A stretch of DNA of 64,000 nt from assembly GCF_029873215.1 (NCBI RefSeq), contig NZ_CP123620.1, positions 2,170,001 through 2,234,000 of the forward strand, written 5' to 3'. A model generated the notes under the pieces. It was given only the letters and a program-made list of their open reading frames with translations, had not been told where the DNA came from and made no database searches. This document shows positions 1 to 40,837 of this stretch, piece by piece (positions within the stretch are counted from its first letter, which is position 1; every line of letters begins with the position of its first letter). The position numbers and the translations under genes were made by a program. This DNA is from Nocardioides sp. BP30 (lineage in GTDB: Bacteria > Actinomycetota > Actinomycetes > Propionibacteriales > Nocardioidaceae).

Positions 1-37
1 GAAGAGGTCACTGGTTCAAACCCAGTATCGTCCACCA
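1..37 (+). tRNA. tRNA-Val, 3' part (cut by window edge)
   Basis: The T stem ACTGG/CCAGT (10-14 and 22-26) encloses the loop TTCAAAC. It is followed by the 3' acceptor strand ATCGTCC, discriminator A and an encoded CCA ending at 37. The 5' part lies outside the window, so the anticodon is not visible. The variable and T-arm sequence is nearly identical to that of the tRNA-Val at 8202-8276, which makes valine the most likely identity. Confidence 0.85.
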
Positions 38-26761: not shown

Positions 26762-26778
26762 TCACCCGGAAAAGGTGA
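26762..26778. promoter_or_regulatory. 17-bp palindrome site 1 (TCACCCG GAA AAGGTGA)
   Basis: The left half is identical to the consensus TCACCCG and the right half differs at two positions. Toward the LAL gene it is followed after 21 nt by TACCGT (26800-26805), a possible -10. Confidence 0.5.
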
Positions 26779-26928
26779 GCGGGGCGCCGGACCCGGATCT
26801 ACCGTGGTTGCGGGACACACACACGCGGCACCGATCCAGATGCGGATCGAGTCCACGTGACACGCCAGTAGATGAACCGATCGGGCGGGGGAGTCTGCCG
26901 GCTTCCCCGGGTTCGAGGGGAGCGAAGG

Positions 26929-29643
26929 GTGGACCGACGTCGTGCGTCAGGCCTCACGGACGTGACGGGCAGGCGAGAGACGGCCGAGCAGGGGGACGAT
27001 CCCCAGCCGCGGGCCCGGGTGCCACGACCGCGCGAGGCGCTCGATGCGATGCCGCGGCTGCCCCGGGTCTACGTACCGCGGATCCGGGTGTCACGACGTC
27101 TCGACCAGGCGCGGGACTGTGCCGTCACCCAGGTCGTCGCCCCGGCCGGAGCGGGCAAGACCTTCAGCGTCGCCGGGTGGATCGGTGCGGCGTTCACCGC
27201 CGGTGAACCCGCCGCCAGGTGGCTGCACGCCGACGAGACGTGGGGGCCCGATCGCCTGCGCGAGGTGCTGGACCACGCAGCCGCTGAGCGGGTCGTCGAG
27301 GGGGCCGGTGAGGGGGCCGGTGGGCGCAGCGGGGCCTCCGGCAGCGCCAGACCACCGGGCCGCGTCGTGATCGACGACGCCCACCTGCTGCCGGCGGCCT
27401 CGTGCCGCGCGCTGGCGGAGAGGCTCAACGAGGATCCCGAGTCGATGCGGCTGGTGCTGCTGAGTCGATGGGACCTGCCCATCGCCCATCTGGTGCCCGA
27501 GCTGCTCGGCCACTTCGCCATGATCCGCGGCGACGTCCTGCGACTCGACGAGCAGGAGGCCCGTGCCCTGATCGTGGAGCACGCCCGCACGGCCGACCCG
27601 ACGGTCGTCGAGGCGATCACCAGCTATGCCCAGGGCTGGTGCGCAGCGGTGGTGCTCGCCTCGCGTGCCGTGGCGGTGAGCCCGGACCCGGTGGCCGCGG
27701 CCCGGCGGTGCACGACGGGCGACAGCCGCTTCGGCGACCGGATCGCGAGCGACGTCTTCGCCTCGCTCTCGCCGCGCACCCGCCACCTGCTGCTGTGCCT
27801 CTCGGCGGAGCAGGTCGTGACCCCTGCGACGGCCGCTCACCTGGCGAACGACGCGATGGCCGGTGAGATCCTGGCCGACCTCGACGGCACCGGCCTGCTG
27901 GTCTCCCGGATCGTGACCGACGATGCCGAGGAACCCGTCCGCTACCGACTCCATCCCCTGCTCAACGAGGTGGTCCGGCGACGGTTGATCACCGACGGTG
28001 TCGACGTCATGGGCGCCCGCGCGACAGTCGTCCGGGCTGTGCTGCTGGACGCCGCGGGCGGCGCCACCGATCGAGCGCTCCCGCGGCTGGAGACCGTCAG
28101 GGCCTTCGAGGAGGGGGCCGCGTTCCTCGCCGACTACGGCGCGGCGATGGTGATGCGCGGCGAGGGTGCCGCCCTGGCGGCGTTCGCCCGCGACCATCCC
28201 GATCAGGTCGAGAGCTGCCCGGACCTGTGGTTCCCCCTGGCCATCGAGCGGTGGGTCGCCGGCGACACCGCCGCCACCGAGCGCCTGCTCGACCAGTGCC
28301 TGGCGCACGGCGGGTGTCTGCGCGAGGAGGAGCTCGCCTGTGCTCGGCTGATGCGGGCCCGGCTCGGACGTGAGCCGTTGCTCCCGGCGGTCGGATTCGC
28401 CCGCGGCGTGGTGCTCGCGGAGAAGGCCAGCGACGTCAGCGCGGAGATCCTGCCGCAGCTGCTCACCGAGCTGGCGATGACGCAGTCGTGGCTCGGCGAC
28501 CTGCACGAGGCCGAGGTGAACCTGGTGGCGGCCGTCGGGCTGGCCAGGACCCGCGAGCTCCCGGCCCTGCGGGCCGCGGCCCTGAGCCACCTGGCGCTGG
28601 CGCAGTACATGCTCGGGCGCGAGCGGGCCTGCACCGAGGTCGCCGGGGAGGCGCTGTCCCGGCTCGACGCCGCGCGTTCCTGGTCGCCGCAGTTCACCCG
28701 GTGGCGGCTCGAGCTCGCCCTCGGCCTGGCCCGGACCGTCGACGTGCCCTGGGATGTCCCACCCGCGCTGCAGGATGCCCGGGTCCATCCGGCCGACCTG
28801 TGCAGTGTGTTCTGGCTGCGGGTGCACAACGCCCACGCGGCGCTCACGGCCGGCTCGATCGCGGACGGCCGAGCGCTGCTCCAGCAGCCCCTCGACCTGC
28901 CCGAGTCCTCGGCCCTGCCCGACCACCTGCTGGTGGTGTGGTTGGTCGAGGAGGCGACGCTCGCCGCCCTCGCGGGCGACAGGACCTCGTTGAAGGCGGT
29001 CGAGGTCCGGCTCGCCGCCGGCGGCTTCCGCGGTGAGGCGGGCTGGGTGGGGGCGCTGCGGGCGGACCTGGAGGGCGATCGGCGTCTGGCTGCCGAGCTC
29101 CTCGAGACGGCTGCCGACGATGCCACCTTCGCTCAGCCGGTCATCCGCCCCGTCGCGCTGGTCGCCCGTGCGCAGCTGCTCGACGAGCTCGGCGAGGGCC
29201 GCGAGGCCCATGAGCTGCTGCGGCGCGCGGTGGTGGAGACGGAGGTACGCCGCAACGCGGCGCCCTTCCTCGGATGGACCCGACAGGGCACCCCGATCCA
29301 GACCCTGCTCGACCAGCTGGTCCAGCGCGGGCCGCGGCCGTGGGCCAAGGAGCTGGCCGATGCGATGGCGTGTGCGACCAGCATCGCGACCTACTTCGAC
29401 CCCGGTACGGCGACACCGGCCGAGGCCGTCGAGGAGCAGACCGTCCACCTGCCCCTGCTGAGCGCGCGTGAACGTGAGGTGCTGCGCCAGCTGGCACGCG
29501 GTGCCACCTACGCGGACATCAGCGCGACGCTGTTCGTCTCGGAGAACACCGTCAAGACCCACGTCAGCAACCTCTACGCCAAGCTCGGGGCGGCGCGACG
29601 CAGCGAAGCGCTCGCGCTGGCCCGATCCCACCACCTCATCTAG
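26929..29643 (+). CDS. LuxR-family LAL (MalT-like) ATP-dependent regulator
   Basis: 904 residues from GTG 26929. An N-terminal STAND-type NTPase has Walker A APAGAGKT (about 72-79) and Walker B VVIDDAHLL. A long alpha-helical, TPR-like middle region follows, then a C-terminal LuxR HTH (LSAREREVLRQL, ENTVKTHVSNLYAKLG). Such regulators multimerise with ATP and a ligand and activate promoters as dimers on palindromes. The start GTG 26929 has GAGGGGAGCGAAG upstream; ATG 26872 lacks a ribosome site. It heads the region containing the six palindromes and is the leading candidate to bind them (inference). Confidence 0.88.
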   Translation: MDRRRASGLTDVTGRRETAEQGDDPQPRARVPRPREALDAMPRLPRVYVPRIRVSRRLDQARDCAVTQVVAPAGAGKTFSVAGWIGAAFTAGEPAARWLHADETWGPDRLREVLDHAAAERVVEGAGEGAGGRSGASGSARPPGRVVIDDAHLLPAASCRALAERLNEDPESMRLVLLSRWDLPIAHLVPELLGHFAMIRGDVLRLDEQEARALIVEHARTADPTVVEAITSYAQGWCAAVVLASRAVAVSPDPVAAARRCTTGDSRFGDRIASDVFASLSPRTRHLLLCLSAEQVVTPATAAHLANDAMAGEILADLDGTGLLVSRIVTDDAEEPVRYRLHPLLNEVVRRRLITDGVDVMGARATVVRAVLLDAAGGATDRALPRLETVRAFEEGAAFLADYGAAMVMRGEGAALAAFARDHPDQVESCPDLWFPLAIERWVAGDTAATERLLDQCLAHGGCLREEELACARLMRARLGREPLLPAVGFARGVVLAEKASDVSAEILPQLLTELAMTQSWLGDLHEAEVNLVAAVGLARTRELPALRAAALSHLALAQYMLGRERACTEVAGEALSRLDAARSWSPQFTRWRLELALGLARTVDVPWDVPPALQDARVHPADLCSVFWLRVHNAHAALTAGSIADGRALLQQPLDLPESSALPDHLLVVWLVEEATLAALAGDRTSLKAVEVRLAAGGFRGEAGWVGALRADLEGDRRLAAELLETAADDATFAQPVIRPVALVARAQLLDELGEGREAHELLRRAVVETEVRRNAAPFLGWTRQGTPIQTLLDQLVQRGPRPWAKELADAMACATSIATYFDPGTATPAEAVEEQTVHLPLLSAREREVLRQLARGATYADISATLFVSENTVKTHVSNLYAKLGAARRSEALALARSHHLI

Positions 29644-31337
29644 GTGCCTTCCTTGGCCGGCGCCCGCACCGGTGCCACAGCGGTCAGCGCCTCCCCGATG
29701 CTCTCGTGGACCCGCCCGACCGTCCGCTGCTCGCGGAACCACGGCGAGCGGTCGAGGACGGCAGAGGTCTCCGGTGGCAGCGCGGTGACCATGAGCGTCG
29801 CGCCCGACTGCTCGAGATCGCTCGCGAGCGCCCGCAGCGCGTCGAGGAACGGCACGGTGACCTCGTGCACGGCGGAGCACTCCAGCAGCACGGCGCGGGT
29901 GGGCGGCTGCACGCTGGCCGCTGTCCGGAGCGCCGCGTCGACGGTGGCCTGGGCATTGCCGGCGTACAGCCCGCCGTCCAGGTGCAGGAGCAGCACGCCC
30001 GCGGGCGATGGGACGGGCGTCGGCGTCGTCGTCCAGCCACCCTCGGGCCGCGGGTAGAGGCGACGTACGCGCGGGCGGTTGACCTGGCGCACCACCAGCG
30101 CCAGCGTCAGCACCAGTCCCACGGCGACGCCGAGCAGCATGCCGCCGGTCAACCCGATCGCCGCCACCACCAGCGCCACCCACAGCTCCGCTCGATCGAT
30201 CCGCGCGTAGTCGGCGAAGTCGCTGGGGTCGAGCAGACCGAGGATCGCCACCAGCACCATCGCCGCCAGCACCGCCCGGGGGAGGTCGTCGAGCACCGGC
30301 GCGAGCACGAGCGCCACCAGCAGCGCCAGCACTGCGGTGGCGAGCTGGGCAACCTGGGATCGGGCGCCGGCCCGCAGGTTCACCGCCGATTGCGATAGGC
30401 CGCCGGCCGGCGGCAGCGTCTGGGTGAGCCCGCCGCCGAGGGCCGCCAGGCCCACCGCCACCAGCTCCTGGTCGACGTCGATCGAGGGCTCCTCCCGGCG
30501 CCTGTTCGTGCGCGAGACCAGCACCGTCTCCAGGAAGGCCATCACCGCGATGGCGAGCGCCGCCGGCAGGAGGCCGAGCACGTCGCCCGCGACCGGCAGC
30601 CGTACGGCGGGAAGGCCGCGCGGTACCTTGTCGATGAGTGCCACCCCGTGAGCCTCGACCGAGGTGAGCGCCACCAGTGCGATGCCGGCACCCACCACGA
30701 ACAGGGGCGCCGGGAGCCGAGGAGCGAGCCGGCGCAGCACCAGGAGCACGGCGACGCTACCCAGGCCGACGGCGACGGTCGCGCCGTTGGCGGTGTCGAG
30801 CTTGGGCAGCAGGTCGGCGATCCGGCCGAAGAAGCCGTCGTCGTCGGGGTCGGGGGCGACCCCGACCAGCGCCGGGAGCTGACTGGCCGCGACGGTGAGG
30901 CCGACGCCGATCCGGATGCCGCTCAGCGTCGCGGGGGAGACCATCTCGACCAGCGCGCCGATCCGGAGCAGTCGCATGCCGAGCAAGCACACGCCGACCA
31001 TGAAGGTCAGCGTCGCTGCCGCCTGCACCTGGTCGGTCACGGAGTCGACGGCGCCGCGCGGCAGCCCGGCCAGGGCCGAGGCGACCAGCACCGCGATCGT
31101 CGAGGTGGTCGACACGCTGAGCGCCCTGGCCCCGCCGAAGAGCGCGTAGACGACCATCGGCACCAGGCACGTGTACAGACCCACCTGCACCGGCAGTCCG
31201 GCGATGGTGGCGTAGGCCATCGCCTGCGGGATCACCACCGTGCCGGCGGTGAGGCCGGCGAGGACGTCGGTGCGCAACCAGGCCCGCCGGTACCCCCGCA
31301 TCGAGGGGCACCACCAGGCGGGCACGGTCCGTGGCAC
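29640..31337 (-). CDS. SulP-family anion transporter with STAS domain (copy 1)
   Basis: 565 residues. The family signature starts at WLRTDVLAGLTAGTVVIPQAMAYA; about 12 membrane segments follow, then a cytosolic STAS domain (from about 445, GVLLLHLDGGLYAGNAQ). SulP proteins move sulfate, bicarbonate or other anions. GTG 31337 is preferred because a CACGGT hexamer placed 23 nt after the palindrome would make it leaderless; GTG 31325 and ATG 31301 are alternatives. The stop shares a CTAG with the convergent LAL gene. Confidence 0.85.
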   Translation of the reverse strand: MPRTVPAWWCPSMRGYRRAWLRTDVLAGLTAGTVVIPQAMAYATIAGLPVQVGLYTCLVPMVVYALFGGARALSVSTTSTIAVLVASALAGLPRGAVDSVTDQVQAAATLTFMVGVCLLGMRLLRIGALVEMVSPATLSGIRIGVGLTVAASQLPALVGVAPDPDDDGFFGRIADLLPKLDTANGATVAVGLGSVAVLLVLRRLAPRLPAPLFVVGAGIALVALTSVEAHGVALIDKVPRGLPAVRLPVAGDVLGLLPAALAIAVMAFLETVLVSRTNRRREEPSIDVDQELVAVGLAALGGGLTQTLPPAGGLSQSAVNLRAGARSQVAQLATAVLALLVALVLAPVLDDLPRAVLAAMVLVAILGLLDPSDFADYARIDRAELWVALVVAAIGLTGGMLLGVAVGLVLTLALVVRQVNRPRVRRLYPRPEGGWTTTPTPVPSPAGVLLLHLDGGLYAGNAQATVDAALRTAASVQPPTRAVLLECSAVHEVTVPFLDALRALASDLEQSGATLMVTALPPETSAVLDRSPWFREQRTVGRVHESIGEALTAVAPVRAPAKEGT

Positions 31338-31372
31338 GGACCCACCGTGGCTGCGGCGTACGCCGGTCCACA

Positions 31373-31389
31373 TCACCCGGGTCGGGTGA
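31373..31389. promoter_or_regulatory. 17-bp palindrome site 2 (TCACCCG GGT CGGGTGA), perfect
   Basis: Perfect 7-bp arms in the divergent region between SulP copy 1 and the formylglycine-generating enzyme gene. Leftward, CACGGT follows after 23 nt; rightward, GAGCAT follows after 23 nt. Confidence 0.7.
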
Positions 31390-31488
31390 GCAGCCCGGGC
31401 GCGCGAACGGGTGAGCATGGGAACCGCACGCGGCGCGGCGTGCTGACGCCGATGGGCCGCGCAGCGCGGCACCCGAGGAGGACGCACC

Positions 31489-32460
31489 ATGGCACCCGAG
31501 CCCCAGCGAGTCCCTCCGCATGGCCGAGACGAGACTGTCGCAGGACCCGGGACCACGCCGATGGTGCTGGTCCCCGGCGGCGCGGATCGGATGGGAGCGC
31601 TCGGGTCCTACCCCGAGGAGGGTCCGGTGGTCGCGACGGCCGTGCCGGACCTGTGGTTCGACGCCCACCCCGTCACCAACGCGCAGTTCGCCTCCTTCGT
31701 GCTCGCGACCGGACACCTCACCGTTGCCGAGCGGGACCTCGACCCGACCGACTTCCCGGGCGCCGACCCGGCTCTGCTGGTGCCCGGCTCGCAGGTGTTC
31801 ACCCAGCCACCGGGACCTGTGGGCCTCGACGACTGGACCCGCTGGTGGCGCTGGCAGCCCGGGGCGCAGTGGCGGCACCCGGACGGACCGGGCAGCGACT
31901 GGCGCGGCTGCCCGGACCACCCCGTCGTGCACGTGGGTTGGGAGGACGCCGCGGCGTACGCCTCCTGGGCCGGGAAGCGGCTGGCTGCCGAGGCCGAATG
32001 GGAGCACGCCGCTCGGGGCGGGCTGGTCGGCGCCACCTACGCCTGGGGCGAGGAGCTGCGTCCGCAGGGTCGGATCATGGCGAACACCTGGCAGGGACCC
32101 TTCCCCTGGCGGAGTGAGGACCCGCGCGGCCACCACCGCACCTCACCGGTCGGCTCCTACCCGGCCAACGGGTACGGACTGTTCGACATGATCGGCAACG
32201 TCTGGGAGTGGACCAGCACACGCTGGAGCGCCGGCCACACGGAGCCGGGCGTCGAGCTGGCGGTCGCTCCCGTGCACAGCTGCTGCGGCAGCGTGACCCG
32301 GCTGCCGGAGCTGCAGGAGGGCGACCGGATGGTGACCAAGGGCGGCTCGCACCTGTGCTCGCCGTCCTACTGCCGTCGCTACCGGCCCGCCGCCCGGCAG
32401 GGGCACGGCGTGCGCGACACCACCTCACACGTGGGGTTCCGCTGCGTCCTGGCCGCCTGA
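31489..32460 (+). CDS. Formylglycine-generating enzyme (sulfatase-activating)
   Basis: 323 residues, FGE-sulfatase fold. Both active-site cysteines are present, C290 and C295 in GGSHLCSPSYCRRYR, along with NVWEWTSTRW, FDMIGN and the C-terminal HVGFRCVLA. The copper-dependent enzyme oxidises a cysteine in CXPXR of type I sulfatases to formylglycine. No signal peptide is seen, so it modifies its substrate in the cytosol before export. GAGGAGG precedes ATG 31489. No sulfatase is in the window. Its 3' end overlaps the convergent membrane-protein gene by 36 bp. Confidence 0.9.
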   Translation: MAPEPQRVPPHGRDETVAGPGTTPMVLVPGGADRMGALGSYPEEGPVVATAVPDLWFDAHPVTNAQFASFVLATGHLTVAERDLDPTDFPGADPALLVPGSQVFTQPPGPVGLDDWTRWWRWQPGAQWRHPDGPGSDWRGCPDHPVVHVGWEDAAAYASWAGKRLAAEAEWEHAARGGLVGATYAWGEELRPQGRIMANTWQGPFPWRSEDPRGHHRTSPVGSYPANGYGLFDMIGNVWEWTSTRWSAGHTEPGVELAVAPVHSCCGSVTRLPELQEGDRMVTKGGSHLCSPSYCRRYRPAARQGHGVRDTTSHVGFRCVLAA

Positions 32461-33807
32461 GGAAGCAGGCGGGCCAGGCTTGTGCCCAGGGTCGTGCGGC
32501 AGCTCGTGCGGCGCCAGGCGGGCGATCACCTCCAGGACCAGCAGGACCAGCGCCGCCACCACGATCAGCGTCAGCGTCCAGGCGCCCGTCGGGTGGTCGG
32601 CGAGGGCGTACACCACGAGGACGACGGCACCGATCGCCACCCGCACCGCCGTCCGGTTCCGGTGCAGGAAGACGCCGACGAACCCGGTGTCCAAGCCCAG
32701 CCGGTCCGAGCCCGACCGGACGGTGTCGAGCAGCCGGCCGCTGCCCCGCCGTACCGCTCGTGCCGAGGGGGAGGGGCCCGCCAGCCAGGCCACCAGCGCG
32801 ACCGCCAGCGTGAGCACCAGCAGCGCCCTGAGGTTGAACCGGATGAACCGGACGATGGTGTCGTAGAAGAGCTCGGCCGTCGTCTGGGAGATGTCCTGGC
32901 CGGAGAGAGCATCGAGGTAGAGGGTGCGCGCGCCGTTGAGCGCGATGCCGAGGACCAGCATCGAGCCGGCGACCACGAGTGCCGCCGTCGTGACCGTACG
33001 GCGCCGGTCGCGGGCGAGCGCGATCGCGGCGGCGAGGAGCAGCACACCGAGGACCGGCAGGGTGTGGGCCAGCGCCGACAGCGCCCGGAAGCCACGCTGG
33101 GCCTTGTCCAGGTCGGTCGACTCGAAGACGGTGAACCGGGCGTCGATCGTCGGGATGTTCGCGGCCAGCCCGAAGCCGGCCGCGACCAGCTGCTCCTTCA
33201 CCGTGGCGATGAAGGCTGCCAGGTCGATGGTGACGGCGCCGTCCTGGACCTGGGTGATCCCGTCGGTCTTGCCGGTCAGCACCGCGACCATCTGGCTGTG
33301 CGCCTGCCGGTTGGCCTCGTCCCAGGCGGTGGCGAAGGCACCCGAGGAGACGATCGTGTGGACCTGGGTGCCGATCCAGCCGTCGAGGGCGTCGGCGAGC
33401 GGCCGGCTCAACGCCCGCAGGCCCGCGGCCGCAGCGGGCGGGGCGCCGCGCTGCTGGAGGGCTGCAGCGGCGCTGGCGGTGAGGCCGCTGACGTCGATCC
33501 GGGAGGCGATCTCGCGGGTGATCCGGGTGCTGATGGCACGCTGGAGCTGCGGGTCGCGGGCCAGCGGAGCGACGGTGGAGACGTACCTGTCGGTGTCGGA
33601 GATCTCGTCGTGCGCCCATGCGGCGACGATGGACAGCGGCGCCACCACACCGAGCAGCACCAGGCACAGCGCCACGGTGGGGCCGCGCCACCACCCGCCC
33701 CGCGCCGTACGCCGGCCGGTGGGCTCCCCGAGGCGCGCCTCGAGTCCCGTGACCTCGGCACGGAGCCGCCGCAGTCGTTCCGCATCGCTCTCGGACGGCT
33801 CGCTCAT
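32425..33807 (-). CDS. Membrane protein, paralogue of 41360-42292
   Basis: 460 residues of unknown function. A short coiled N-terminus is followed by membrane helix 1 (about 50-70), an extracytoplasmic domain of about 175 residues (DTDRYVSTVAPLARDP, EANRQAHSQ, IDLAAFIATVK, FTVFESTDLD), then three to five helices. ATG 33807 has GGAGG upstream. The shorter paralogue shares the whole N-terminal architecture; this copy has an additional C-terminal pair of helices and a His/Pro-rich tail. Probably a stress-related envelope protein by context. Confidence 0.8.
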   Translation of the reverse strand: MSEPSESDAERLRRLRAEVTGLEARLGEPTGRRTARGGWWRGPTVALCLVLLGVVAPLSIVAAWAHDEISDTDRYVSTVAPLARDPQLQRAISTRITREIASRIDVSGLTASAAAALQQRGAPPAAAAGLRALSRPLADALDGWIGTQVHTIVSSGAFATAWDEANRQAHSQMVAVLTGKTDGITQVQDGAVTIDLAAFIATVKEQLVAAGFGLAANIPTIDARFTVFESTDLDKAQRGFRALSALAHTLPVLGVLLLAAAIALARDRRRTVTTAALVVAGSMLVLGIALNGARTLYLDALSGQDISQTTAELFYDTIVRFIRFNLRALLVLTLAVALVAWLAGPSPSARAVRRGSGRLLDTVRSGSDRLGLDTGFVGVFLHRNRTAVRVAIGAVVLVVYALADHPTGAWTLTLIVVAALVLLVLEVIARLAPHELPHDPGHKPGPPASSGGQDAAEPHV

Positions 33808-33862
33808 CGGACGTCCTCCGGGACCGGCCCGGCGAGGAATGTCGCGCCACGCCGCGACCGGT

Positions 33863-33879
33863 TCGCCCGTTTCGGGTGG
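33863..33879. promoter_or_regulatory. 17-bp palindrome site 3 (TCGCCCG TTT CGGGTGG)
   Basis: One change per outer arm relative to the consensus, with CCCG-N3-CGGG kept. Rightward, CACCCT follows after 22 nt and the small membrane-protein ATG lies 73 nt from the site. Confidence 0.5.
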
Positions 33880-33951
33880 CGGCGCCGCGGGGCCGCAGGT
33901 GCACCCTCGGACCAGTAGGCCCGCGCGGCATCCACTCGGGAGGAGACGGTC

Positions 33952-34137
33952 ATGGCCCACATCGCACGGTTCCACGTCCCCATCCGCGAGCACCGGGTGC
34001 CGCCGGGCGAGCGGCACAGCATCGGCACCATCGTCGCCGGCGTCGTGGCGATGCTGGCGCTCGCCGGCATGGTCGGTGGTCTGCTGGCCGCGGCCGCCTG
34101 GGCCGGCTCGCGACTGGTCCTCGGGGTGTTCTCCTGA
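33952..34137 (+). CDS. Small single-pass membrane protein (61 aa)
   Basis: ATG 33952 follows GGGAGGAGACGG. The product has a basic 22-residue N-terminus rich in His/Arg and one hydrophobic helix (about 24-58, rich in Gly/Ala). No family is recognised. It faces away from the 460-residue membrane protein with palindrome site 3 in between. Confidence 0.65.
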   Translation: MAHIARFHVPIREHRVPPGERHSIGTIVAGVVAMLALAGMVGGLLAAAAWAGSRLVLGVFS

Positions 34138-34165
34138 CCGCGACCAGCATCCACGGCGAGACCGC

Positions 34166-34600
34166 TCAGTAACCGGAACGGCGGTCGGAGCCGATCTGGA
34201 AGCACAGCGCCCAGATCACCAGCGCGTTGAAGCCGACCAGCACCAGGGACCAGAACGGGTAGTAGGGCAGGAACAGGAAGTTGGCGATCGCGCCGACGAC
34301 GCCGACGACGATGCCGCCGAGGCGTCCCCAGGTCTGGTTGGTCAGGATGCCCACGCCCACGGCGAGCGCGACAGCGCCCACCGCGATGTGGATCCAGCCC
34401 CATGCCGAGACGTCGAACTCGTAGGCATAGTCGATCCCCGTCACGTAGATCTTGTCGTCGGCCACGGCGGCTATCCCCTGCAGGACCTGGAGGATGCCGA
34501 TCATCGACAGCATGCAGGCGGCGAAGATCGCGGTGGACAGGGACAGCATCCCGCGGGCGGGGTTGTCGTCGTCGTCGCGGCGCGGACTGGTGGTGCTCAT
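34166..34600 (-). CDS. Four-helix membrane protein (DUF7144-like), copy A
   Basis: 144 residues with an acidic N-terminus and four membrane helices. Motifs GILQVLQGIAAV, AWGWIHIAVG and NFLFLPYYPFWSLVL recur in the neighbouring paralogue. The family name is from memory and uncertain. Function unknown. 46 bp separate it from copy B upstream, so the two are probably co-transcribed. Confidence 0.8.
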   Translation of the reverse strand: MSTTSPRRDDDDNPARGMLSLSTAIFAACMLSMIGILQVLQGIAAVADDKIYVTGIDYAYEFDVSAWGWIHIAVGAVALAVGVGILTNQTWGRLGGIVVGVVGAIANFLFLPYYPFWSLVLVGFNALVIWALCFQIGSDRRSGY

Positions 34601-34646
34601 CGGCGGACCTCCTGGGTCGGCGGGTCGGGACGGTCGAGGACGGTGG

Positions 34647-35060
34647 TCAGACGCGGCGGGGGATCATGGCGGCCAGGGCCCAGATCACGGCGATGTCGAA
34701 GACGATCAGCACGATCGAGGCCAGCGGGTAGTAGGGCAGGAACAGGAACGTCGCCACGAGCGAGAGGGTCGCGATGAGGATCCCGAGGACGTAGGCGAGT
34801 TCCTGACCGGCCACGATGCCGGCGCCGACGAGCGCGGCCACCACTCCCACGATCAGGAGGATCCAGCCCCACGCGGTGAGGTCCAGCTTGAAGGCGTAGC
34901 CCGACCGCAGGACGAAGACGTCGCCGCCGAGGACGGCTGCCAGCCCCTCGAGGGCCTGCAGGATGCCGAGCAGCACGAGCATCATCCCGGCGAACAGGGC
35001 CAGCCCGGCCGCAGCGAACGACGGGGACCTCTCGTAGCGAGTCGGGAACGGCTCGCTCAT
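34647..35060 (-). CDS. Four-helix membrane protein (DUF7144-like), copy B
   Basis: 137 residues, four helices, with GILQALEGLAAV, AWGWILLIVG and TFLFLPYYPLASIVL matching copy A position by position. Tandem duplication is the obvious origin. It follows the DUF1269 gene by 25 bp in the same direction and probably shares its promoter near 35667. Confidence 0.8.
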   Translation of the reverse strand: MSEPFPTRYERSPSFAAAGLALFAGMMLVLLGILQALEGLAAVLGGDVFVLRSGYAFKLDLTAWGWILLIVGVVAALVGAGIVAGQELAYVLGILIATLSLVATFLFLPYYPLASIVLIVFDIAVIWALAAMIPRRV

Positions 35061-35085
35061 GACGGCTCCACCACGTGGCTCTCGC

Positions 35086-35595
35086 TCAGGCCTCGACGGC
35101 GTCGGACTCGAACACGTCGCGCAGCGCTCGCTCCTGCTCGGCCGAGAGGTTGGTGAAGATCAGCTCCGAGGGCCCGTGCCCGGCGAAGGCGTCGTGGACC
35201 TTGTCCATCACCGCGTCCGACGTCATCACGAACAGGGCCGAGGTCCCGGGCGTCACCTCGTCGCGGATCTTGTTGATGAACCGGTCGTCGATCCCGACAT
35301 CCGTCAGCGACCCCGCGAGAGCGCCGGTGGCTGCGCCGATCGCCGCCCCGAGCAGCGGCACGAAGAAGATCAGCCCGAACAGCAGCCCCCAGAACGCGCC
35401 GCCGAGGGCCCCGCCGCCGGTGAGGTTGTTGAGCTGATGGGTCTTCGGCTTCTTCTTGCCGACCTCCCACGAGACAGTGGCGGCGTCGTGGACCTTGATC
35501 ACCTGCTCCTCGGCGAGCCTGGCCAGCGTGTGGGCCGCCTCGTCGGCTCCGTTCGGCGTGTCGAACCTCCAAACGGTCAGGGTTCCGTTGGCCAT
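35086..35595 (-). CDS. DUF1269-family membrane protein, copy 1
   Basis: 169 residues with N-terminal TLTVWRFDTPNGADEA, a Gly-rich hydrophobic hairpin (GGALGGAFWGLLFGLIFF and GAAIGAATGALAG) and a C-terminal soluble part. The hairpin of closely spaced glycines is typical of the family. Its function is unknown. A homologue is encoded at 40301. ATG 35595 has AAGGAGC upstream. A palindrome copy lies 72 nt before the start, overlapping the end of the SulP gene. Confidence 0.85.
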   Translation of the reverse strand: MANGTLTVWRFDTPNGADEAAHTLARLAEEQVIKVHDAATVSWEVGKKKPKTHQLNNLTGGGALGGAFWGLLFGLIFFVPLLGAAIGAATGALAGSLTDVGIDDRFINKIRDEVTPGTSALFVMTSDAVMDKVHDAFAGHGPSELIFTNLSAEQERALRDVFESDAVEA

Positions 35596-35666
35596 CGTGT
35601 GCTCCTTCGCTGTGAGTGCGCGGGATCCCGCTGACCTCAGCGTGGGCACAACGACTCTCGCGCTGC

Positions 35667-35683
35667 TCACCCGTTCTCGGTGA
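35667..35683. promoter_or_regulatory. 17-bp palindrome site 4 (TCACCCG TTC TCGGTGA)
   Basis: One mismatch to the consensus. It covers the stop codon of SulP copy 2 and lies upstream of the DUF1269 gene; leftward, CACGCT follows after 22 nt. Confidence 0.6.
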
Positions 35684-37379
35684 ACGAGGCGGCGATCGCC
35701 GCCTCGACGGTGCGGTAGATCGCCGGCTCGGCGGAGTCGGCGGCCCGCTCGAGCACGTCGCGGACCTGGCCGACGTCCTCGGCGAGCACGAGCTCGGCCC
35801 CACGGCGGCGCAGGTCGGCCCGAAGCTGGATGAGCATGCCGGTCGCGGTCACGTCGATCGACGGTGTGGTCCGGCCGTCGAGGATCACCAGCCGCAGGTC
35901 GTCGTCCGCGTCGGCGAACGCGCGCACCCGTTCGCGGACGTAGTCGGCGTTCGCGAAGACCAGGGCGGCCTCCACCCGGAGCACGAGTACGCCGGGGACC
36001 TCGGCGTACTCGGGGTTGCGGGTCGTGTCCACCCACGGGCCGGCCGGATGACCGGTCTGCGCGAGCTCGATGCCGCCGACGGGCGCCAGCGGTGCGAGGT
36101 GCGGGCGGGACGTGCGGTCGATGAGGAGCAGCAGCGAGACGCCGATCCCGATCACCAGCCCCGGGAGCGTGTCGAAGACGAGCACGCCGAGCATCGCCGC
36201 GACGGCGCCCACGAAGTCGGCTCGTGCGCTGAGCTGGTAGACCTTGGCCAGCTGACCCGCTCTGACCCGCCACAGCTGTCGCAGGGAGGCGAGGTCGACG
36301 AGCTCGATCACCGCGGCGATGACGATCGCCGCCAGCGTCGCCTCGGGCAGGTTCTCGAACAGGCCGGTCAGGAACAGCAGCGTCAGGACCGTCAGCACCG
36401 CGGCGGTCACGCCGGAAAGCTGCGAGCGCGCTCCCGCCGAGCCGTTGACAGCTGTCTTCGACAGCGAGCCGTTGACCACCATGCCCGAAGCCAGGCCAGC
36501 GCCCAGGTTGGCGCCACCGAGCCCGATGAGCTCGCGGTTGGCGTCGATCTCGTAACCGCTGCGGGCGGCGTACGTCTTGGCGGCGCCGAGGCCCTCGGCG
36601 AACCCGACCAGCATCACTCCGACAGCACCACCGAGCAGGTCGCGGAACTGGTCGAAGGACACGTCGGGGAAGCCGAGCCGGGGAAGGCCCGCCCCGATAT
36701 GCCCGACGATGTCCAGACCATGCTGGTCGAGGTCGAGCCCGGCGGTCAGGCCGATGCAGGCCAGCGCCACCACCAGGGAGCCGGGTAGGAGGGGCAGCCA
36801 GCGGCGGAGCACCAGGAGTGCGGTCAGGCTGGCCAGCCCGACCAGGACGGTGAGCCCGTCGGCATCGCCCAGGTGCCGCAGCACGTCCCAGGCCTTCTCG
36901 AAGAAGTCGCCCGAGCCCTTGCCCACGCCGAGCAGTGCGGGCACCTGGCCGACCATGATGGTCAGCGCCAGGCCGATGATGAAGCCCTTGAGCACCGGTT
37001 CGCTGATGAAGGCCGCCAGGAAGCCCAGGCGCAGCAACCCGGCCAACAGCGCCACGATCCCGGTGGCGACCGCGAGGCCGGCGGTGAGAACGGCCGCCTG
37101 GCCGTGCCCGGTGCCGACCGCCGCGACCACGCCTGCCGACAGCGCGGCGGTCGCCGACATCGGCGCCACGATGAGGTGGCGCGAGGAGCCGAGGAGCGCG
37201 TAGAGCAGCAGCGCCGGCACCGCGGCGTAGAGGCCGACCACCGGCGTGACACCGGCGATGGTGGCGTAGGCCAGCGACTCCGGCACCAGCACCGCCCAGA
37301 CCGTCAGGCCCGCGACCAGGTCGGACCGGACCCATCCGGCCGTGTACGCCGAGAAGGACGGGGCGATCAGCTTGGGCAC
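35667..37379 (-). CDS. SulP-family anion transporter with STAS domain (copy 2)
   Basis: 570 residues. The signature WVRSDLVAGLTVWAVLVPESLAYATIAG is followed by about 12 membrane segments and a STAS domain (from about 440, GVLVLRVEAALVFANADYVRERV). It is clearly diverged from copy 1, hence not a recent duplicate. GTG 37379 is chosen for AAAGGGA upstream and fit to the family N-terminus. Its leader carries a 14-bp hairpin, and a perfect palindrome lies 104 nt upstream. Confidence 0.88.
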   Translation of the reverse strand: MPKLIAPSFSAYTAGWVRSDLVAGLTVWAVLVPESLAYATIAGVTPVVGLYAAVPALLLYALLGSSRHLIVAPMSATAALSAGVVAAVGTGHGQAAVLTAGLAVATGIVALLAGLLRLGFLAAFISEPVLKGFIIGLALTIMVGQVPALLGVGKGSGDFFEKAWDVLRHLGDADGLTVLVGLASLTALLVLRRWLPLLPGSLVVALACIGLTAGLDLDQHGLDIVGHIGAGLPRLGFPDVSFDQFRDLLGGAVGVMLVGFAEGLGAAKTYAARSGYEIDANRELIGLGGANLGAGLASGMVVNGSLSKTAVNGSAGARSQLSGVTAAVLTVLTLLFLTGLFENLPEATLAAIVIAAVIELVDLASLRQLWRVRAGQLAKVYQLSARADFVGAVAAMLGVLVFDTLPGLVIGIGVSLLLLIDRTSRPHLAPLAPVGGIELAQTGHPAGPWVDTTRNPEYAEVPGVLVLRVEAALVFANADYVRERVRAFADADDDLRLVILDGRTTPSIDVTATGMLIQLRADLRRRGAELVLAEDVGQVRDVLERAADSAEPAIYRTVEAAIAASFTENG

Positions 37380-37411
37380 GATGGTCCCTTTCGACGCGTC
37401 GGGCGGACCTT

Positions 37412-37443
37412 CGCCGGTGAGCTCAGCGGTGAGCTCACCGGCG
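37412..37443 (-). promoter_or_regulatory. 5'-leader hairpin of SulP copy 2
   Basis: Perfect 14-bp arms (37412-37425 and 37430-37443) with loop GCGG. Each arm contains the 8-bp palindrome TGAGCTCA, so the element is also a 12-bp direct repeat starting GGTGAGCTCA. If transcription starts near 37447 the hairpin sits at the very 5' end of the mRNA. Confidence 0.65.
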
Positions 37444-37482
37444 TGCCCGCCGCAGCCTAGGCACCGCCGCGGCGACGGGTTG

Positions 37483-37499
37483 TCACCCGCATCGGGTGA
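37483..37499. promoter_or_regulatory. 17-bp palindrome site 5 (TCACCCG CAT CGGGTGA), perfect
   Basis: Perfect 7-bp arms. Leftward it is followed after 23 nt by TAGGCT, the presumed -10 of SulP copy 2. Confidence 0.7.
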
Positions 37500-37667
37500 G
37501 CGCAGACCGCACCGGCCCCAACGTGATGGCAGCGGTGGACGCGTCCCAGCATGGCCTCGAGACGGTGGGGCGACCCGGTGGCCGATCGCGCACGAGCGGC
37601 CCGTGCGCAGCGGCGTACTGCTCGTCCCCGGCCAGTTGCCCACGCAGGCGGGGCGTGCACGTGCTCC

Positions 37668-37684
37668 TCGCCTGAATCCGGTGA
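37668..37684. promoter_or_regulatory. 17-bp palindrome site 6 (TCGCCTG AAT CCGGTGA)
   Basis: The most degenerate copy (three changes). Rightward it is followed after 22 nt by TAGGTT (37707-37712), the presumed -10 of the AI-2E-type operon. Confidence 0.4.
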
Positions 37685-37760
37685 CCCCACCGGTCGGGCC
37701 CGCTCGTAGGTTGGGCCGTCGGCGGGGTTCGGCGGGGTTCGGCGCAGGGAGGGGGCGGCC

Positions 37761-37823
37761 ATGGCACCGGGGGACGGCAGGTCGCTGACCAGCATCGCCG
37801 TGCGGAGCGTGGGGACACGATGA
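37761..37823 (+). CDS. 20-aa upstream ORF coupled to next gene
   Basis: ATG 37761 has GGGAGGGGGCGG upstream and the frame ends in TGA overlapping the next ATG (ATGA at 37820). The product has no recognisable feature. It is likely a leader peptide that brings ribosomes to the following ORF, which lacks a good site of its own. Confidence 0.4.
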   Translation: MAPGDGRSLTSIAVRSVGTR

Positions 37824-38023
37824 CCAGGGCCCTGATCAGGGTGGACGGCGAGATCCCCGAGGACGTCACGAGTGCCTTCCCGCACCTGATCGCACGCCAG
37901 CAGCGGGCCTCGACGACCCTGATCGGGGACGTGATCGACCAGCAGGAGCTGCAGGGCGTGCTCAACCTGCTCAGCGCACTGGGGATCGACGTCGTCGAGG
38001 TGGTGACCATCCCCGATGACTGA
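37820..38023 (+). CDS. Small hypothetical protein (67 aa)
   Basis: A soluble protein predicted beta-alpha-beta (RALIRVDGEIPEDV, QQELQGVLNLLSALGIDVVEVVTIPDD). It overlaps the AI-2E-type gene by 8 nt, so the two are co-translated. Genes of this size with a DVVEVV end often precede membrane proteins in actinobacteria, but no function is known. Confidence 0.65.
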   Translation: MTRALIRVDGEIPEDVTSAFPHLIARQQRASTTLIGDVIDQQELQGVLNLLSALGIDVVEVVTIPDD

Positions 38024-39074
38024 GCGCCTGGTGCCGGGCGTTCCGAGGACGCCGCGCGTCCTGGTCGTCCTGCTCGAGGTCGCGGCGGCCGTCGTCGTCA
38101 TCGCCGGCGCCCGAGTCGCCTCGGCGCTGATCGGGCCGATCTTCCTGGCGCTGGTGGTGACGATCGCCGCCCATCCGCTCCGCGCCCGCCTCGACCGGCA
38201 CCTCCCGCGCTGGGTCTCGTCGCTGATCAGCCTGCTCGTGGTCAACCTGGTGATCGTCGGACTCGGCTGCGTCCTGATCGTCGCGGTCGCGCGCTTCGCC
38301 TCGCTGCTGCCGCAGTACGAGGCGACGTTCGACGAGCACCTCGACCAGCTCACCGCCCATCTGCGCACGCTGTCCGTCTCCCAGGACCAGATCCAGCACC
38401 TGCGCGACCACCTCGACCTGGGTCGGTTGACAGACGTCGTCACCTCGGCGCTCTCGGGGATCTTCGGCGCGCTCTCGGGGTTGCTGTTCATCCTCGCGCT
38501 GGTGCTCTTCATGACCATCGACGGCAGCGGCTTCCCGGCCCGGCTCGCCGAGGCGGCCGAGGCGCGCCCGGCGCTGGTGGAGGCGGTGGTGGGCTTCGCC
38601 CGGGGCACCCGGCGCTACCTGCTCGTCTCGACGGTCTTCGGGCTCATCGTGGCGGTCTGCGACACGGTGGCCCTGGCGATCATGGGCGTTCCGGCTCCGA
38701 TGCTGTGGGGGCTGCTGGCCTTCCTGACCAACTACATCCCCAACATCGGCTTCCTCATCGGACTGGTGCCGCCCGCGGTGCTGGCCGGCCTGGACTCCGG
38801 GCTGGGGCTCCTGATCGCCGTGGTGGTGGTCTACAGCCTGCTGAACCTGGTGATCCAGTCGGCCATCCAGCCGAAGGTGGTCGGCGATGCGGTGGGACTC
38901 TCGACGACCCTCACCTTCCTCTCGCTGGTGTTCTGGTCCTGGGTGATCGGACCGCTGGGCGCGATCTTGGCCATTCCGCTCTCGTTGTTCGTCAAGGCGC
39001 TGCTCATCGACGCTGACCCGGCCAGCCACTGGCTGCGACCCCTGGTGTCCAACCGCGCCCCCGCAGCGCCGTGA
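38016..39074 (+). CDS. AI-2E-family transporter (TerC/PerM-like permease)
   Basis: 352 residues with eight hydrophobic segments, a central soluble helical region (LPQYEATFDEHLDQL), and conserved loops FLTNYIPNIGFLIGLVPPAVLA and IQPKVVGDAVGLSTTLTFLSLVFWSWVIG. Members include the AI-2 exporter TqsA and sodium/proton antiporters, so the substrate is open. It starts inside the preceding small gene and overlaps the truncated SulP gene by 4 nt. Confidence 0.88.
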   Translation: MTERLVPGVPRTPRVLVVLLEVAAAVVVIAGARVASALIGPIFLALVVTIAAHPLRARLDRHLPRWVSSLISLLVVNLVIVGLGCVLIVAVARFASLLPQYEATFDEHLDQLTAHLRTLSVSQDQIQHLRDHLDLGRLTDVVTSALSGIFGALSGLLFILALVLFMTIDGSGFPARLAEAAEARPALVEAVVGFARGTRRYLLVSTVFGLIVAVCDTVALAIMGVPAPMLWGLLAFLTNYIPNIGFLIGLVPPAVLAGLDSGLGLLIAVVVVYSLLNLVIQSAIQPKVVGDAVGLSTTLTFLSLVFWSWVIGPLGAILAIPLSLFVKALLIDADPASHWLRPLVSNRAPAAP

Positions 39075-39613
39075 GCCCACCGGAACGCCCGTCCCAGGAA
39101 CGCCCGTCCCTGAAGACTCTGTACGGCGCGTCGTTGCGCCGGGCGCAGGCACGAGCGGGGCGGTGGCTGGGCCACGAGGCCCGCGAGATCGTCCCGCGCC
39201 GGCACCAATGGCGCCGCGACCTGCTCGCCGGCCTGCCCGGCGCGATCTCGAGCGTGCCGGACGGGATGGCCTCCAGCGTGCTGGCCGGTGTCGGGTCGGC
39301 CCATGGTCTCTACGCCTCCTTCGCCGGCCCCATCGTGGGCGGCCTGACGTCCTCCACCCGCTTGATGGTGGTGACGACGACCAGTGCAGCGGCGCTGGCG
39401 GCCGGGTCCGCACTCTCGGGTTACCAGGCCGGCCCGCAGCGCAACCACGCCCTGCTCTTGCTGACGGTGCTCGCCGGACTGCTGATGGTGGCAGCTGCTC
39501 TCCTCGGCCTCGGGCGCTACATCCGGTTCGTGTCGTATTCGGTGATGCTCGGGTTCCTCACCGGCGTGGCGGTCAACATGGTGCTCGGTCAGCTGCCCGA
39601 TCTGGCCGGGTAG
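39071..39613 (+). pseudogene. Truncated SulP-family transporter (N-terminal third only)
   Basis: 180 codons. After a basic N-terminus the SulP signature (WRRDLLAGLPGAISSVPDGMASSVLAG) and four to five helices are intact, but the frame stops at GQLPDLAG, about one third of family length. No frame downstream continues the transporter and a different gene begins 85 bp later, so an internal deletion, not a point frameshift, is likely. It starts by GTGA overlap with the permease gene, so it may still be translated. No STAS domain is present. Confidence 0.7.
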
Positions 39614-39641
39614 CGCTCGCGCGAAAAGGGGGATGCGAGCG
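39614..39641 (+). terminator. Hairpin at the SulP truncation point
   Basis: CGCTCGC and GCGAGCG arms with a 14-nt loop start immediately after the stop codon. Confidence 0.4.
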
Positions 39642-39698
39642 TGCCGCCGCGGGCGTTGACTCGTCGCGTCCCCGTCCGGGGATCGGGGGGAGGCGGTC

Positions 39699-40301
39699 TT
39701 GTCGGCGACGGTCCTGCTGCTGTTGGGCGCGGTGCTGTGCTTCCTGGGTGCCGTGTCGATCCGGCTCGGCGTGCTGGCCGCGGGGTTCGGCGGCGGCTGG
39801 ATCCTCGCCGAGGTGTTCGACGCCTCCGTGGCGGTTCGGGCGCTGGTCGGCCTCGTCGCGGCCCTGGCGGCGTTCGTCGCCACCCTCCTGGTCGCCAAGC
39901 TGCTGTTCTTCATCGGCGGCCTGTGCGCCGGCGCGGTGCTGGGTGCCAAGCTGTTCGTGGTGGCCGACTCGGGGGTCGGGCACGGCGACCCCGATGTGCT
40001 GCTGGCGTGCATCGTCGTACCGGCGATCGGGGTCCTGTGCGGCTTCCTGGCCGACCGTTGGCAGCGTGGCTTCCTGCGGCTGGCCACCGCAGCCGCCGGA
40101 GCTGCGCTGCTGCTCTCCGGCGTCGGCCGGATCGGATCGGGCGACACCGCGCAGCTGTGGCATCCCGACTCGGCCACCGGCAGCGTCCTGCTCGGGGTGT
40201 CGTGGGTCGTGCTCGCCGTCGTGGGGTACCGGGTGCAGCGCGGGCGCGCGCGGCAGGCACGACGGCACGCCGAGGCTCCCGCCGGGGGAAGGGGGCGGTG
40301 A
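39699..40301 (+). CDS. Multi-pass membrane protein (DUF4203-like)
   Basis: 200 residues with about seven hydrophobic segments and a basic C-terminus. The TTG start at 39699 is supported by GGGGGGAGG 6 nt upstream. The pattern of Gly-rich helices resembles the DUF4203/TMEM198-like family (assignment tentative). Its stop overlaps the next start (TGATG). Function unknown. Confidence 0.75.
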   Translation: MSATVLLLLGAVLCFLGAVSIRLGVLAAGFGGGWILAEVFDASVAVRALVGLVAALAAFVATLLVAKLLFFIGGLCAGAVLGAKLFVVADSGVGHGDPDVLLACIVVPAIGVLCGFLADRWQRGFLRLATAAAGAALLLSGVGRIGSGDTAQLWHPDSATGSVLLGVSWVVLAVVGYRVQRGRARQARRHAEAPAGGRGR

Positions 40302-40837
40302 TGTCCGGGTCCACCACCTTGACGGTCTGGGTCTACGACTCGGCGCTGGGCGCCGCCGCCGGCGAGGTCAGACTCAAGGACCTGGAGCAGCGCAACGCGC
40401 TGGTGGTGCACGACGCCGTCACCGTGACCTGGTTCCCGGGCGCGCACGAGCCACGGATCGGGCACGTCCGGCACCGGGCGTTGCTCAGCGCCGGCCAGGG
40501 CTCGATGCTCGGGGTCATCCTCGGCGCCGCGCTGTTCGTGCCGGTCGCCGGCGTGGCCGTGGGGGCAGGAGCCGGTGTGCTGATGAGCAGGCTGCACGGC
40601 GTCGGCATCGAGCGCTCGCTGCTGGAGGACCTGCGCGCCCGGCTGGCGCCCGGGCGCTCGGCGCTCGTGGTGCTCTCCAGTGAGGCCGATCCCGAGACGG
40701 TCAGGACGTTCGTGTCGCGCGGCCTGGCGCGCGGCGACGTGGAGCTGCTGTACGCGCGCCTCTCCGACGACGCGCCCGCCGAGCTGCGCGCACTCGTCGA
40801 GGAGGCGGTGGCGCGCGACGATTCCGGGTCGCCGTGA
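40301..40837 (+). CDS. DUF1269-family membrane protein, copy 2
   Basis: 178 residues: TLTVWVYDSALGAAAGEVRL at the N-terminus, a Gly-rich hydrophobic hairpin (GQGSMLGVILGAALFVPVAG, VGAGAGVLMS) and a C-terminal domain ending in ELRALVEEAV. Same architecture as the protein encoded at 35086. ATG 40301 shares one base with the upstream stop, and the K+ channel start overlaps its end (GTGA), so the three genes 39699-41349 form one operon. Confidence 0.85.
   Translation: MSGSTTLTVWVYDSALGAAAGEVRLKDLEQRNALVVHDAVTVTWFPGAHEPRIGHVRHRALLSAGQGSMLGVILGAALFVPVAGVAVGAGAGVLMSRLHGVGIERSLLEDLRARLAPGRSALVVLSSEADPETVRTFVSRGLARGDVELLYARLSDDAPAELRALVEEAVARDDSGSP

What the first reader, a model, noticed from the sequence alone, without database searches (positions are those of the whole stretch)
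26762..37684. Six copies of a 17-bp palindrome TCACCCG-N3-CGGGTGA define a possible new regulon
Sites at 26762, 31373, 33863, 35667, 37483 and 37668 lie in front of the LAL regulator, SulP copy 1, the formylglycine enzyme, a small membrane protein, DUF1269, SulP copy 2 and the AI-2E-type operon. Two are perfect palindromes; the others differ at one to three positions. In seven outgoing directions a hexamer of the form nAnnnT (TAGGCT, TAGGTT, TACCGT, CACGGT, CACGCT, CACCCT, GAGCAT) follows 21-23 nt after the site, which would centre the box near -43, where activators replace the -35. The fixed spacing is hard to explain by chance. The LAL/LuxR protein encoded at 26929 is the natural candidate regulator, and its own gene carries a site. 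The genes share a theme of anion transport and envelope stress. I know of no described regulon with this box.
Basis: partly seen in the sequence, partly recalled or inferred. Interest (0 to 1): 0.9.

Follow-up and report, generated by a model that had tools for sequence, protein, structure and literature searches.

The report
LAL-activator regulon with 17-bp box
A real set of switch sites lies in front of transport, sulfatase and other membrane-related genes in this actinobacterium and its relatives, probably read by a large MalT-like activator protein; a sister system is already known in Actinoplanes, so the kind is known but this branch of it appears undescribed.

Summary
All six sites exist; seven outgoing promoters carry an AnnnT hexamer with its A at box_end+23..25. 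Across 32 loci (684 kb) 155 boxes have spacer 3 against 1 for the reversed pattern; 137 of 155 are intergenic where 10.3% of sequence is. The hexamer follows 146 of 196 oriented boxes, control offset 17. Box numbers track the LAL protein: at least 7 boxes in 24 of 27 genomes with an orthologue, 15 of 169 without. Clusters picked by boxes alone contain a LuxR-HTH protein in 9 of 9 genus-mates and a LAL in 7 of 8 loci further away. Distant sites are boxed too.

The novelty claim is only partly right. Actinoplanes 'MalT' (LAL-like) activates most of a 51-gene region through TCATCC-N5-GGATGA, 34.4 nt from mapped starts (PMC7567727): same architecture, one base different per half-site. BldM of Streptomyces uses the same half-site with spacer 2. 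I call it a new variant of a known kind. Binding by the LAL is inferred, not shown.

The parts
26762..26778 (.). box 1 TCACCCGGAAAAGGTGA, in front of LAL gene
26800..26805 (+). -10-like TACCGT for LAL
26929..29643 (+). LAL / MalT-like regulator, 904 aa; P-loop near the N-terminus (by eye), C-terminal LuxR HTH (SENTVKTH)
   Evidence: start codon not certain
29640..31301 (-). SulP copy 1 (Sulfate_transp + STAS)
31344..31349 (-). -10-like CACGGT for SulP1
31373..31389 (.). box 2 TCACCCGGGTCGGGTGA, perfect, divergent SulP1/FGE
31413..31418 (+). -10-like GAGCAT for FGE
31489..32460 (+). formylglycine-generating enzyme (FGE), LCSPSYCRRYR cysteines present
32425..33807 (-). 460-aa membrane-type protein, no Pfam family; recurrent in the clusters
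33863..33879 (.). box 3 TCGCCCGTTTCGGGTGG
33902..33907 (+). -10-like CACCCT for the 61-aa gene
33952..34137 (+). 61-aa putative membrane protein, no Pfam family
34166..34600 (-). DUF7144 protein, probably in an operon with DUF1269
   Evidence: gene order
34647..35060 (-). DUF7144 protein
35086..35595 (-). DUF1269 protein
35639..35644 (-). -10-like CACGCT for DUF1269
35667..35683 (.). box 4 TCACCCGTTCTCGGTGA, overlaps the SulP2 stop codon
35667..37379 (-). SulP copy 2
37454..37459 (-). -10-like TAGGCT for SulP2
37483..37499 (.). box 5 TCACCCGCATCGGGTGA, perfect
37668..37684 (.). box 6 TCGCCTGAATCCGGTGA
37707..37712 (+). -10-like TAGGTT for the 67-aa/AI-2E operon
37820..38023 (+). 67-aa protein family, no Pfam family; recurrent in the clusters
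38016..39074 (+). AI-2E family transporter

Best explanation
The 17-bp palindrome TCACCCG-N3-CGGGTGA (equivalently TCACCC-N5-GGGTGA) is the operator of the LAL protein encoded at 26929-29643, a MalT-like STAND-type ATPase with a LuxR-type DNA-binding domain. When an unknown ligand and ATP switch it on, a dimer (or part of an oligomer) binds the palindrome centred near -43, takes the place of a -35 element and recruits sigma-70-type RNA polymerase to a -10 AnnnT hexamer that begins after a fixed gap of 21-23 nt. It thereby turns on a dispersed regulon: two SulP transporters, FGE and an arylsulfatase of the kind FGE activates (about 0.9 Mb apart), Sap, SHOCT proteins, DUF1269, DUF7144, a 67-aa protein with AI-2E, and an amino-acid-permease/arginine-deiminase pair. 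Shown by sequence: box, fixed spacing, placement, co-occurrence with the LAL, boxed genes far from it. Inferred: binding, activation, ATP/ligand control, physiological role. Related regulons with a TCATCC or mixed box exist in other actinomycetes, one tested genetically in Actinoplanes.
For:: 32 loci (window, 28 chosen by LAL, 3 by box): 34/56/65 boxes with 0/1/2 mismatches; reversed control 0/0/1; other spacers 6-14 in all, nearly all with 2 mismatches except spacer 2 (2/5/6); 137 of 155 intergenic against 10.3% of sequence. A of AnnnT at +24 in 90 and +25 in 52 of 196 oriented promoters, 0-9 at other offsets. LAL orthologue (E<=1e-60) in 27 of 196 genus genomes, own included; mean boxes 12.8 against 2.96; at least 7 boxes in 24/27 against 15/169; clusters chosen by boxes alone in 9 genomes without the orthologue: LuxR-HTH protein in 9 of 9 genomes (pattern match), against 1 of 9 loci around lone exact sites. 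LAL and boxes together also in Promicromonospora, Brachybacterium, Ornithinimicrobium, Aeromicrobium; 59 distant LuxR loci (990 kb) hold 0/3/9; class sample, exact boxes in 8 of 9 LAL+ genomes, 79 of 385 LAL-; box-picked clusters elsewhere in the class, LAL in 7 of 8, same gene families and hexamer spacing. SHOCT/PLDc_N family in 14 of 14 LAL+ and 1 of 16 LAL- genomes tested; boxed copy in 13 of the 14, and all 14 boxed copies have the hexamer. G101, LAL+ with background box numbers, has AESTVKTH instead of SENTVKTH. AlphaFold model; top PDB matches a maltose-system (MalT) entry, 8bob, and a STAND-TPR protein, 6mfv. Actinoplanes MalT deletion and overexpression, same box geometry at mapped starts.
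Against: No binding or expression data for this protein. Genome-wide counts in the own genome are not above the spacer-2 count, so weak sites cannot be called. Of the 15 genomes without the orthologue but with at least 7 boxes, 8 were not looked at. LAL+ genomes G006, G018, G101 have 3, 5, 2 boxes. 79 of 385 LAL- genomes of the class have an exact box. In the box-picked genus clusters 3 of 12 loci lack a LuxR protein (L152, whose neighbour L153 has it; L159, L162), and in G131 and G173 the one seen has only 179 and 381 aa. Two loci around weak LAL matches (L164, L176) have no box. 4 of the 12 boxes in the 59 distant loci sit in one Streptomyces locus (L210). Of the 7 closest SHOCT/PLDc_N matches only G063's is boxed; the other boxed copies are lower-identity family members, and in G066 and G100 one lies within about 20 kb of the LAL. 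Sap: 4 of 10 LAL+ copies boxed, 2 of these 4 with the hexamer. The sulfatase remnant (421850), 2990021, 1350330 forward and 33863 reverse lack a well-placed hexamer. FGE elsewhere has a box in 2 of 10 and 0 of 4 copies, none with the hexamer. The boxed permease/deiminase promoter has 2 mismatches and no transferase or kinase gene next to it.
Confidence: 0.86

Rival explanations
1. The boxes are bound by a BldM-like NarL/LuxR response regulator, not by the LAL; the LAL merely lies in the same island.
For: BldM homodimer sites are TCACcCgnncGgGTGA, identical half-sites (PMC4125116); this genome has other LuxR-HTH proteins (11 matches in all to the LAL query); a few spacer-2 boxes lie beside LAL genes.
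Against: BldM spacer is 2, here 3 by 155 boxes to 13; box number follows the LAL orthologue; box-only clusters carry LuxR-HTH/LAL genes; G101 has a changed helix and background box numbers. I had no BldM sequence and did not test its presence in the genus.
Confidence: 0.06
2. The box is an operator for repression (the LAL or another protein blocks the promoter) rather than activation.
For: A site overlapping the -35 could do either; a LAL that represses is reported (SCO6993, abstract in a search listing).
Against: The box itself occupies the -35 region and the gap to the -10 is fixed at 21-23 nt, the class II activator arrangement (class II recalled); the Actinoplanes relative is an activator by deletion and overexpression.
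Confidence: 0.06
3. The palindromes are chance or composition effects of a GC-rich genome, or repeats of a mobile element.
For: Counts at 2-3 mismatches in window and genome are at or near background.
Against: Intergenic placement, spacer specificity, hexamer spacing and cross-genus recurrence; in the aligned promoters the half-sites and the hexamer stand out most, not a long repeat.
Confidence: 0.02

Closest known systems
MalT (ACSP50_3915) regulon / MRLGR of Actinoplanes sp. SE50/110 (Droste et al. 2020, PMC7567727)
   Same: LuxR-family, MalT-like activator; 17-bp palindrome of two hexamers 5 nt apart overlapping -35; 3' end 34.4+/-1.0 nt from mapped starts (here inferred about 34-35); many membrane and unknown genes; amino acid permease and arginine deiminase.
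   Different: Half-site TCATCC there, TCACCC here (mixed in G039, G044, G102, G131); regulon here includes SulP, FGE/sulfatase, AI-2E, DUF families and sites dispersed over the chromosome; maltose dependence untested here. Its gene tables (supplement) could not be read, so the full overlap is unknown.
BldM Group I sites of Streptomyces (PMC4125116)
   Same: Half-sites TCACCCG/CGGGTGA; LuxR/NarL-type HTH (recalled)
   Different: 16 bp, spacer 2; orphan response regulator; developmental genes
E. coli MalT and MalT boxes
   Same: Large ATP-dependent LuxR-HTH activator; MalT-system entry 8bob is the top fold match and MalT domain III (1hz4) ranks 20th; box beside -35 as quoted in PMC7567727
   Different: Asymmetric GGGGA(T/G)GAGG boxes; maltose genes; NCBIfam MalT score 84.9 against cut-off 537

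Membership tests
LAL (large ATP-binding LuxR) regulators | C-terminal LuxR/GerE HTH | tested here: met
   PF00196 E 9.6e-17, residues 844-897
LAL (large ATP-binding LuxR) regulators | about 900 aa with N-terminal P-loop/Walker motifs and helical repeats | tested here: met
   PAGAGKT and VVIDDAH by eye, conserved P-G-G-K columns; AlphaFold mean pLDDT 81.7, long run of helices; top PDB folds 8bob (MalT system; E 1.2e-8, TM 0.45 by target) and 6mfv (STAND-TPR). Pfam finds no ATPase domain. ATPase activity not tested.
MalT equivalog (maltose activator) | NCBIfam MalT score above cut-off 537 bits | tested here: not met
   84.9 bits
Actinoplanes MalT/MRLGR-type regulon | 17-bp palindrome, two hexamers 5 nt apart, 3' end about 34 nt from the start site | tested here: met
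   geometry met through AnnnT at +24/25; starts inferred, not mapped
Actinoplanes MalT/MRLGR-type regulon | half-site TCATCC | tested here: not met
   window boxes 0 of 6 half-sites TCATCC (3 boxes counted); mixed in L126, L127, L152, L153, L157, L158, L163 among others
Actinoplanes MalT/MRLGR-type regulon | shared target genes | tested here: inconclusive
   AA_permease + arginine deiminase (PF02274 E 8e-134) behind a 2-mismatch box with hexamer at 1248022; the rest could not be compared
Actinoplanes MalT/MRLGR-type regulon | maltose-dependent activation | not testable with these tools
   needs expression data
BldM regulon | 16-bp site with spacer 2 | tested here: not met
   spacer 3 155 boxes, spacer 2 13

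The most novel reading that the evidence does not exclude
A family of regulons spread over several actinomycete families, not recognised as such in the papers I could search, in which MalT-like STAND activators with an NTVKTH recognition helix read TCAYCC-N5-GGRTGA and jointly control a shuffled set of anion transporters, FGE/arylsulfatases, small DUF membrane proteins and arginine deiminase: a signal-gated starvation/envelope programme whose ligand is unknown.
Probability: 0.7. Interest if true: 0.68.

Novelty: new variant of a known kind. Interest (0 to 1): 0.58.

Why it matters
LAL regulators are called poorly studied (PMC3282765, abstract in a search listing); to my recollection few have a known operator, and target families such as DUF1269, DUF6325, DUF7144, SHOCT and Sap have little or no assigned function. 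A defined box with a fixed promoter geometry gives target lists in several genera from sequence alone, links sulfatases to the enzyme that activates them, and ties a genetically tested but unexplained Actinoplanes regulon to a wider system. It makes the search for the LAL ligand directly testable with reporters.

Tried and rejected
Genome-wide counting at 2-3 mismatches: near background, not usable alone. The reversed-pattern control is too lenient: LAL-negative genomes average 2.96 boxes against 0.81 reversed, and spacer-2 boxes beat the reversed pattern too; I therefore rely on spacers, placement and hexamer. A single-sequence LAL scan of named genomes found nothing; the alignment scan worked (best 80 kept). 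A first look at upstream boxes ignored strand and undercounted; redone. I looked for an altered box in G101: no shared candidate, and none of the regulon families recognised by eye nearby. A split-LAL idea for G044/G039 was dropped: two LuxR proteins in tandem, each with its own HTH. The pattern used to find LuxR-HTH proteins missed at least the longer one of each pair, so 'no LuxR' statements are not certain. Literature: ten searches. One search found 207 papers holding both 7-mers, 20 of them listed and none opened. Searches gave the BldM paper; the Actinoplanes paper came up only. I saw no other description of this box in the listings. Non-open literature and supplements could not be read. 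Gene calls are from a home-made codon-usage finder, so starts and small genes may be off.
Full report
What was checked. The window lies at 2170001-2234000 of a single-contig 4.28 Mb genome. Its genus is probably Nocardioides: contigs of same-genus G handles have the same lengths as named Nocardioides contigs.

Is it more than chance? Not by counting loose matches: 14 in the window where 10.7 are expected; 48 in the genome, fewer than the 71 for a spacer of two. But 6 of the 7 sites with 0-1 mismatch are intergenic. When a weight matrix is built from other genomes only, all six window sites fall in the top 15 of the 378 kb scanned (window plus stretches around loose matches, not the whole genome). 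The others in the top 15 stand in front of SHOCT proteins (1350330, 182997), Sap (1435188), an arylsulfatase (3120978), a DUF7144 gene (1351270) and an amino-acid permease/arginine deiminase pair (1248022); one (712298) is inside a gene, one (421850) precedes a sulfatase remnant and one (2990021) an unrelated-looking gene, both without a proper hexamer.

Comparative test. The LAL protein has an orthologue (E<=1e-60) in 27 of 196 genomes of the genus, this one included. Boxes with at most one mismatch number 12.8 on average there and 2.96 in the other 169; at least seven boxes in 24 of 27 against 15 of 169. In 28 loci around LAL genes, three box-chosen loci and the window I found 155 boxes with the three-base spacer, 13 with two, 6-14 with the other spacers, and one for the reversed pattern; 137 of the 155 are intergenic. 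Lined up on the box, promoters show a sharp A at +24/25 and T four bases later: 90 and 52 of 196 at offsets 24 and 25, 0-9 at the others. If that T is -7, the box is centred near -43.

Does the box lead to the regulator? I took genus-mates without an orthologue: 7 of the 15 with at least seven boxes, and two with six whose listed sites lay close together. In 9 of 9 genomes a LuxR-HTH protein lies in the fetched cluster, though 3 of the 12 loci lack one (L152, which adjoins L153 that has it; L159; L162), and in G131 and G173 the protein seen is only 179 and 381 aa; G131 also has a weak LAL match elsewhere. Around nine lone exact sites one locus had one (L174). Further away in the class, 7 of 8 box-picked clusters contain a LAL and the same gene families (L313 is the exception; six of the eight are from one family). 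LAL and boxes also occur together in Promicromonospora, Brachybacterium, Ornithinimicrobium and Aeromicrobium, whereas 59 loci of distant LuxR proteins hold 12 boxes in 990 kb, 4 of them in one Streptomyces locus.

Action at a distance. In this genome the boxed SHOCT/PLDc_N gene is 2 Mb from the LAL. Its family is found in 14 of 14 LAL-positive and 1 of 16 LAL-negative genomes of a set of 30 that I chose; 13 of the 14 have a boxed copy, and all 14 boxed copies (of 23) have the hexamer. The boxed copies are mostly not the closest matches: of the 7 closest only G063's is boxed; and in G066 and G100 a boxed copy lies near the LAL. For Sap the picture is weaker: 4 of 10 LAL-positive copies boxed, two with the hexamer.

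The recognition helix. 69 of 70 LuxR-type proteins collected from these loci keep N-T-[VI]-[KR]-[TS]-H; the exception is the LAL of G101, with AESTVKTH (a pattern that looks for this very shape, and some genomes are in it twice). G101 has two boxes genome-wide, and none of up to 3 mismatches between the genes of the 20 kb around its LAL. One case, suggestive only.

What the regulator is. PF00196 at the C-terminus, a P-loop near the N-terminus by eye, and an AlphaFold model (mean pLDDT 81.7) whose top PDB matches are a MalT-system entry (8bob chain C, E 1.2e-8, TM 0.45 by target) and a STAND-TPR protein. It scores far below the MalT equivalog cut-off, so it is MalT-like, not MalT.

What it controls. 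Recurrent boxed families: DUF1269, DUF7144, DUF308, BrkB, DUF6325, SulP, a 67-79-aa protein, AI-2E, PLD/cardiolipin-synthase-like, sulfatase, SHOCT, Sap; among unassigned genes of the same loci 16 of 241 and 32 of 194 have box and hexamer. The window FGE matches solved FGEs (6s07, 215.8 bits) and keeps an LCxxSYCxRYR segment; the boxed arylsulfatase has the CSPTR motif an FGE acts on (meaning of both motifs recalled). So this regulon probably couples a sulfatase with its activator. The theme of the rest is unclear; starvation, acid or envelope stress is a guess.

Against the literature. BldM Group I sites are TCACcCgnncGgGTGA (PMC4125116, passages seen): same half-site, spacer two. The close relative is the Actinoplanes MalT regulon (PMC7567727; abstract, passages, sections 13 and 15 and part 1 of 14 read): TCATCC-5nt-GGATGA at 17 mapped starts, 34.4+/-1.0 nt from them; 42 of 51 genes down in the deletion mutant, 39 up on overexpression; an operon with amino acid permease, arginine deiminase, ornithine carbamoyltransferase and carbamate kinase. 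This genome has a boxed permease/deiminase pair (2 mismatches; no transferase or kinase gene follows in the stretch read). G044 has a class II glutamine amidotransferase, a permease and mixed TCATCC/TCACCC boxes in one cluster with the DUF families, a natural bridge. Hence: known kind, new variant, wider than that paper reports. Weak points are the lack of any binding data, the home-made gene calls, and the uncorrected relatedness of the genomes.

Noticed in passing
L018:4006-4251 (genome 421505-421750): Boxed 81-aa remnant of a sulfatase (Pfam Sulfatase E 8e-4, below cut-off), cut short; no proper -10 hexamer.
   Followed up: partly
L016:4515-4730 and upstream (genome near 1351000): DUF7144 gene behind a boxed promoter whose reading frame appears broken.
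   Followed up: no
L144:11489, L146:11325, L147:8252, L143:16565, L136:5510: Boxes with spacer 2 instead of 3 occur beside LAL genes of some genomes, i.e. the BldM-type spacing.
   Followed up: no
L157:11702-15489, L158, L153: Tandem pair of LuxR proteins (a 700-750-aa MalT-like one and a 370-430-aa one) in clusters with mixed TCATCC/TCACCC boxes.
   Followed up: partly
L133, L136, L137, L139, L141, L143: Second adjacent LAL paralogue with a different HTH (VSENTVKTHLASIYRKL); its operator is unknown.
   Followed up: no
window 39266-41349: By eye (not scanned) further SulP-like, TM7S3-like, DUF1269-like and ion-channel-like genes downstream of AI-2E; no box of up to 3 mismatches between 37684 and 52605.
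   Followed up: no
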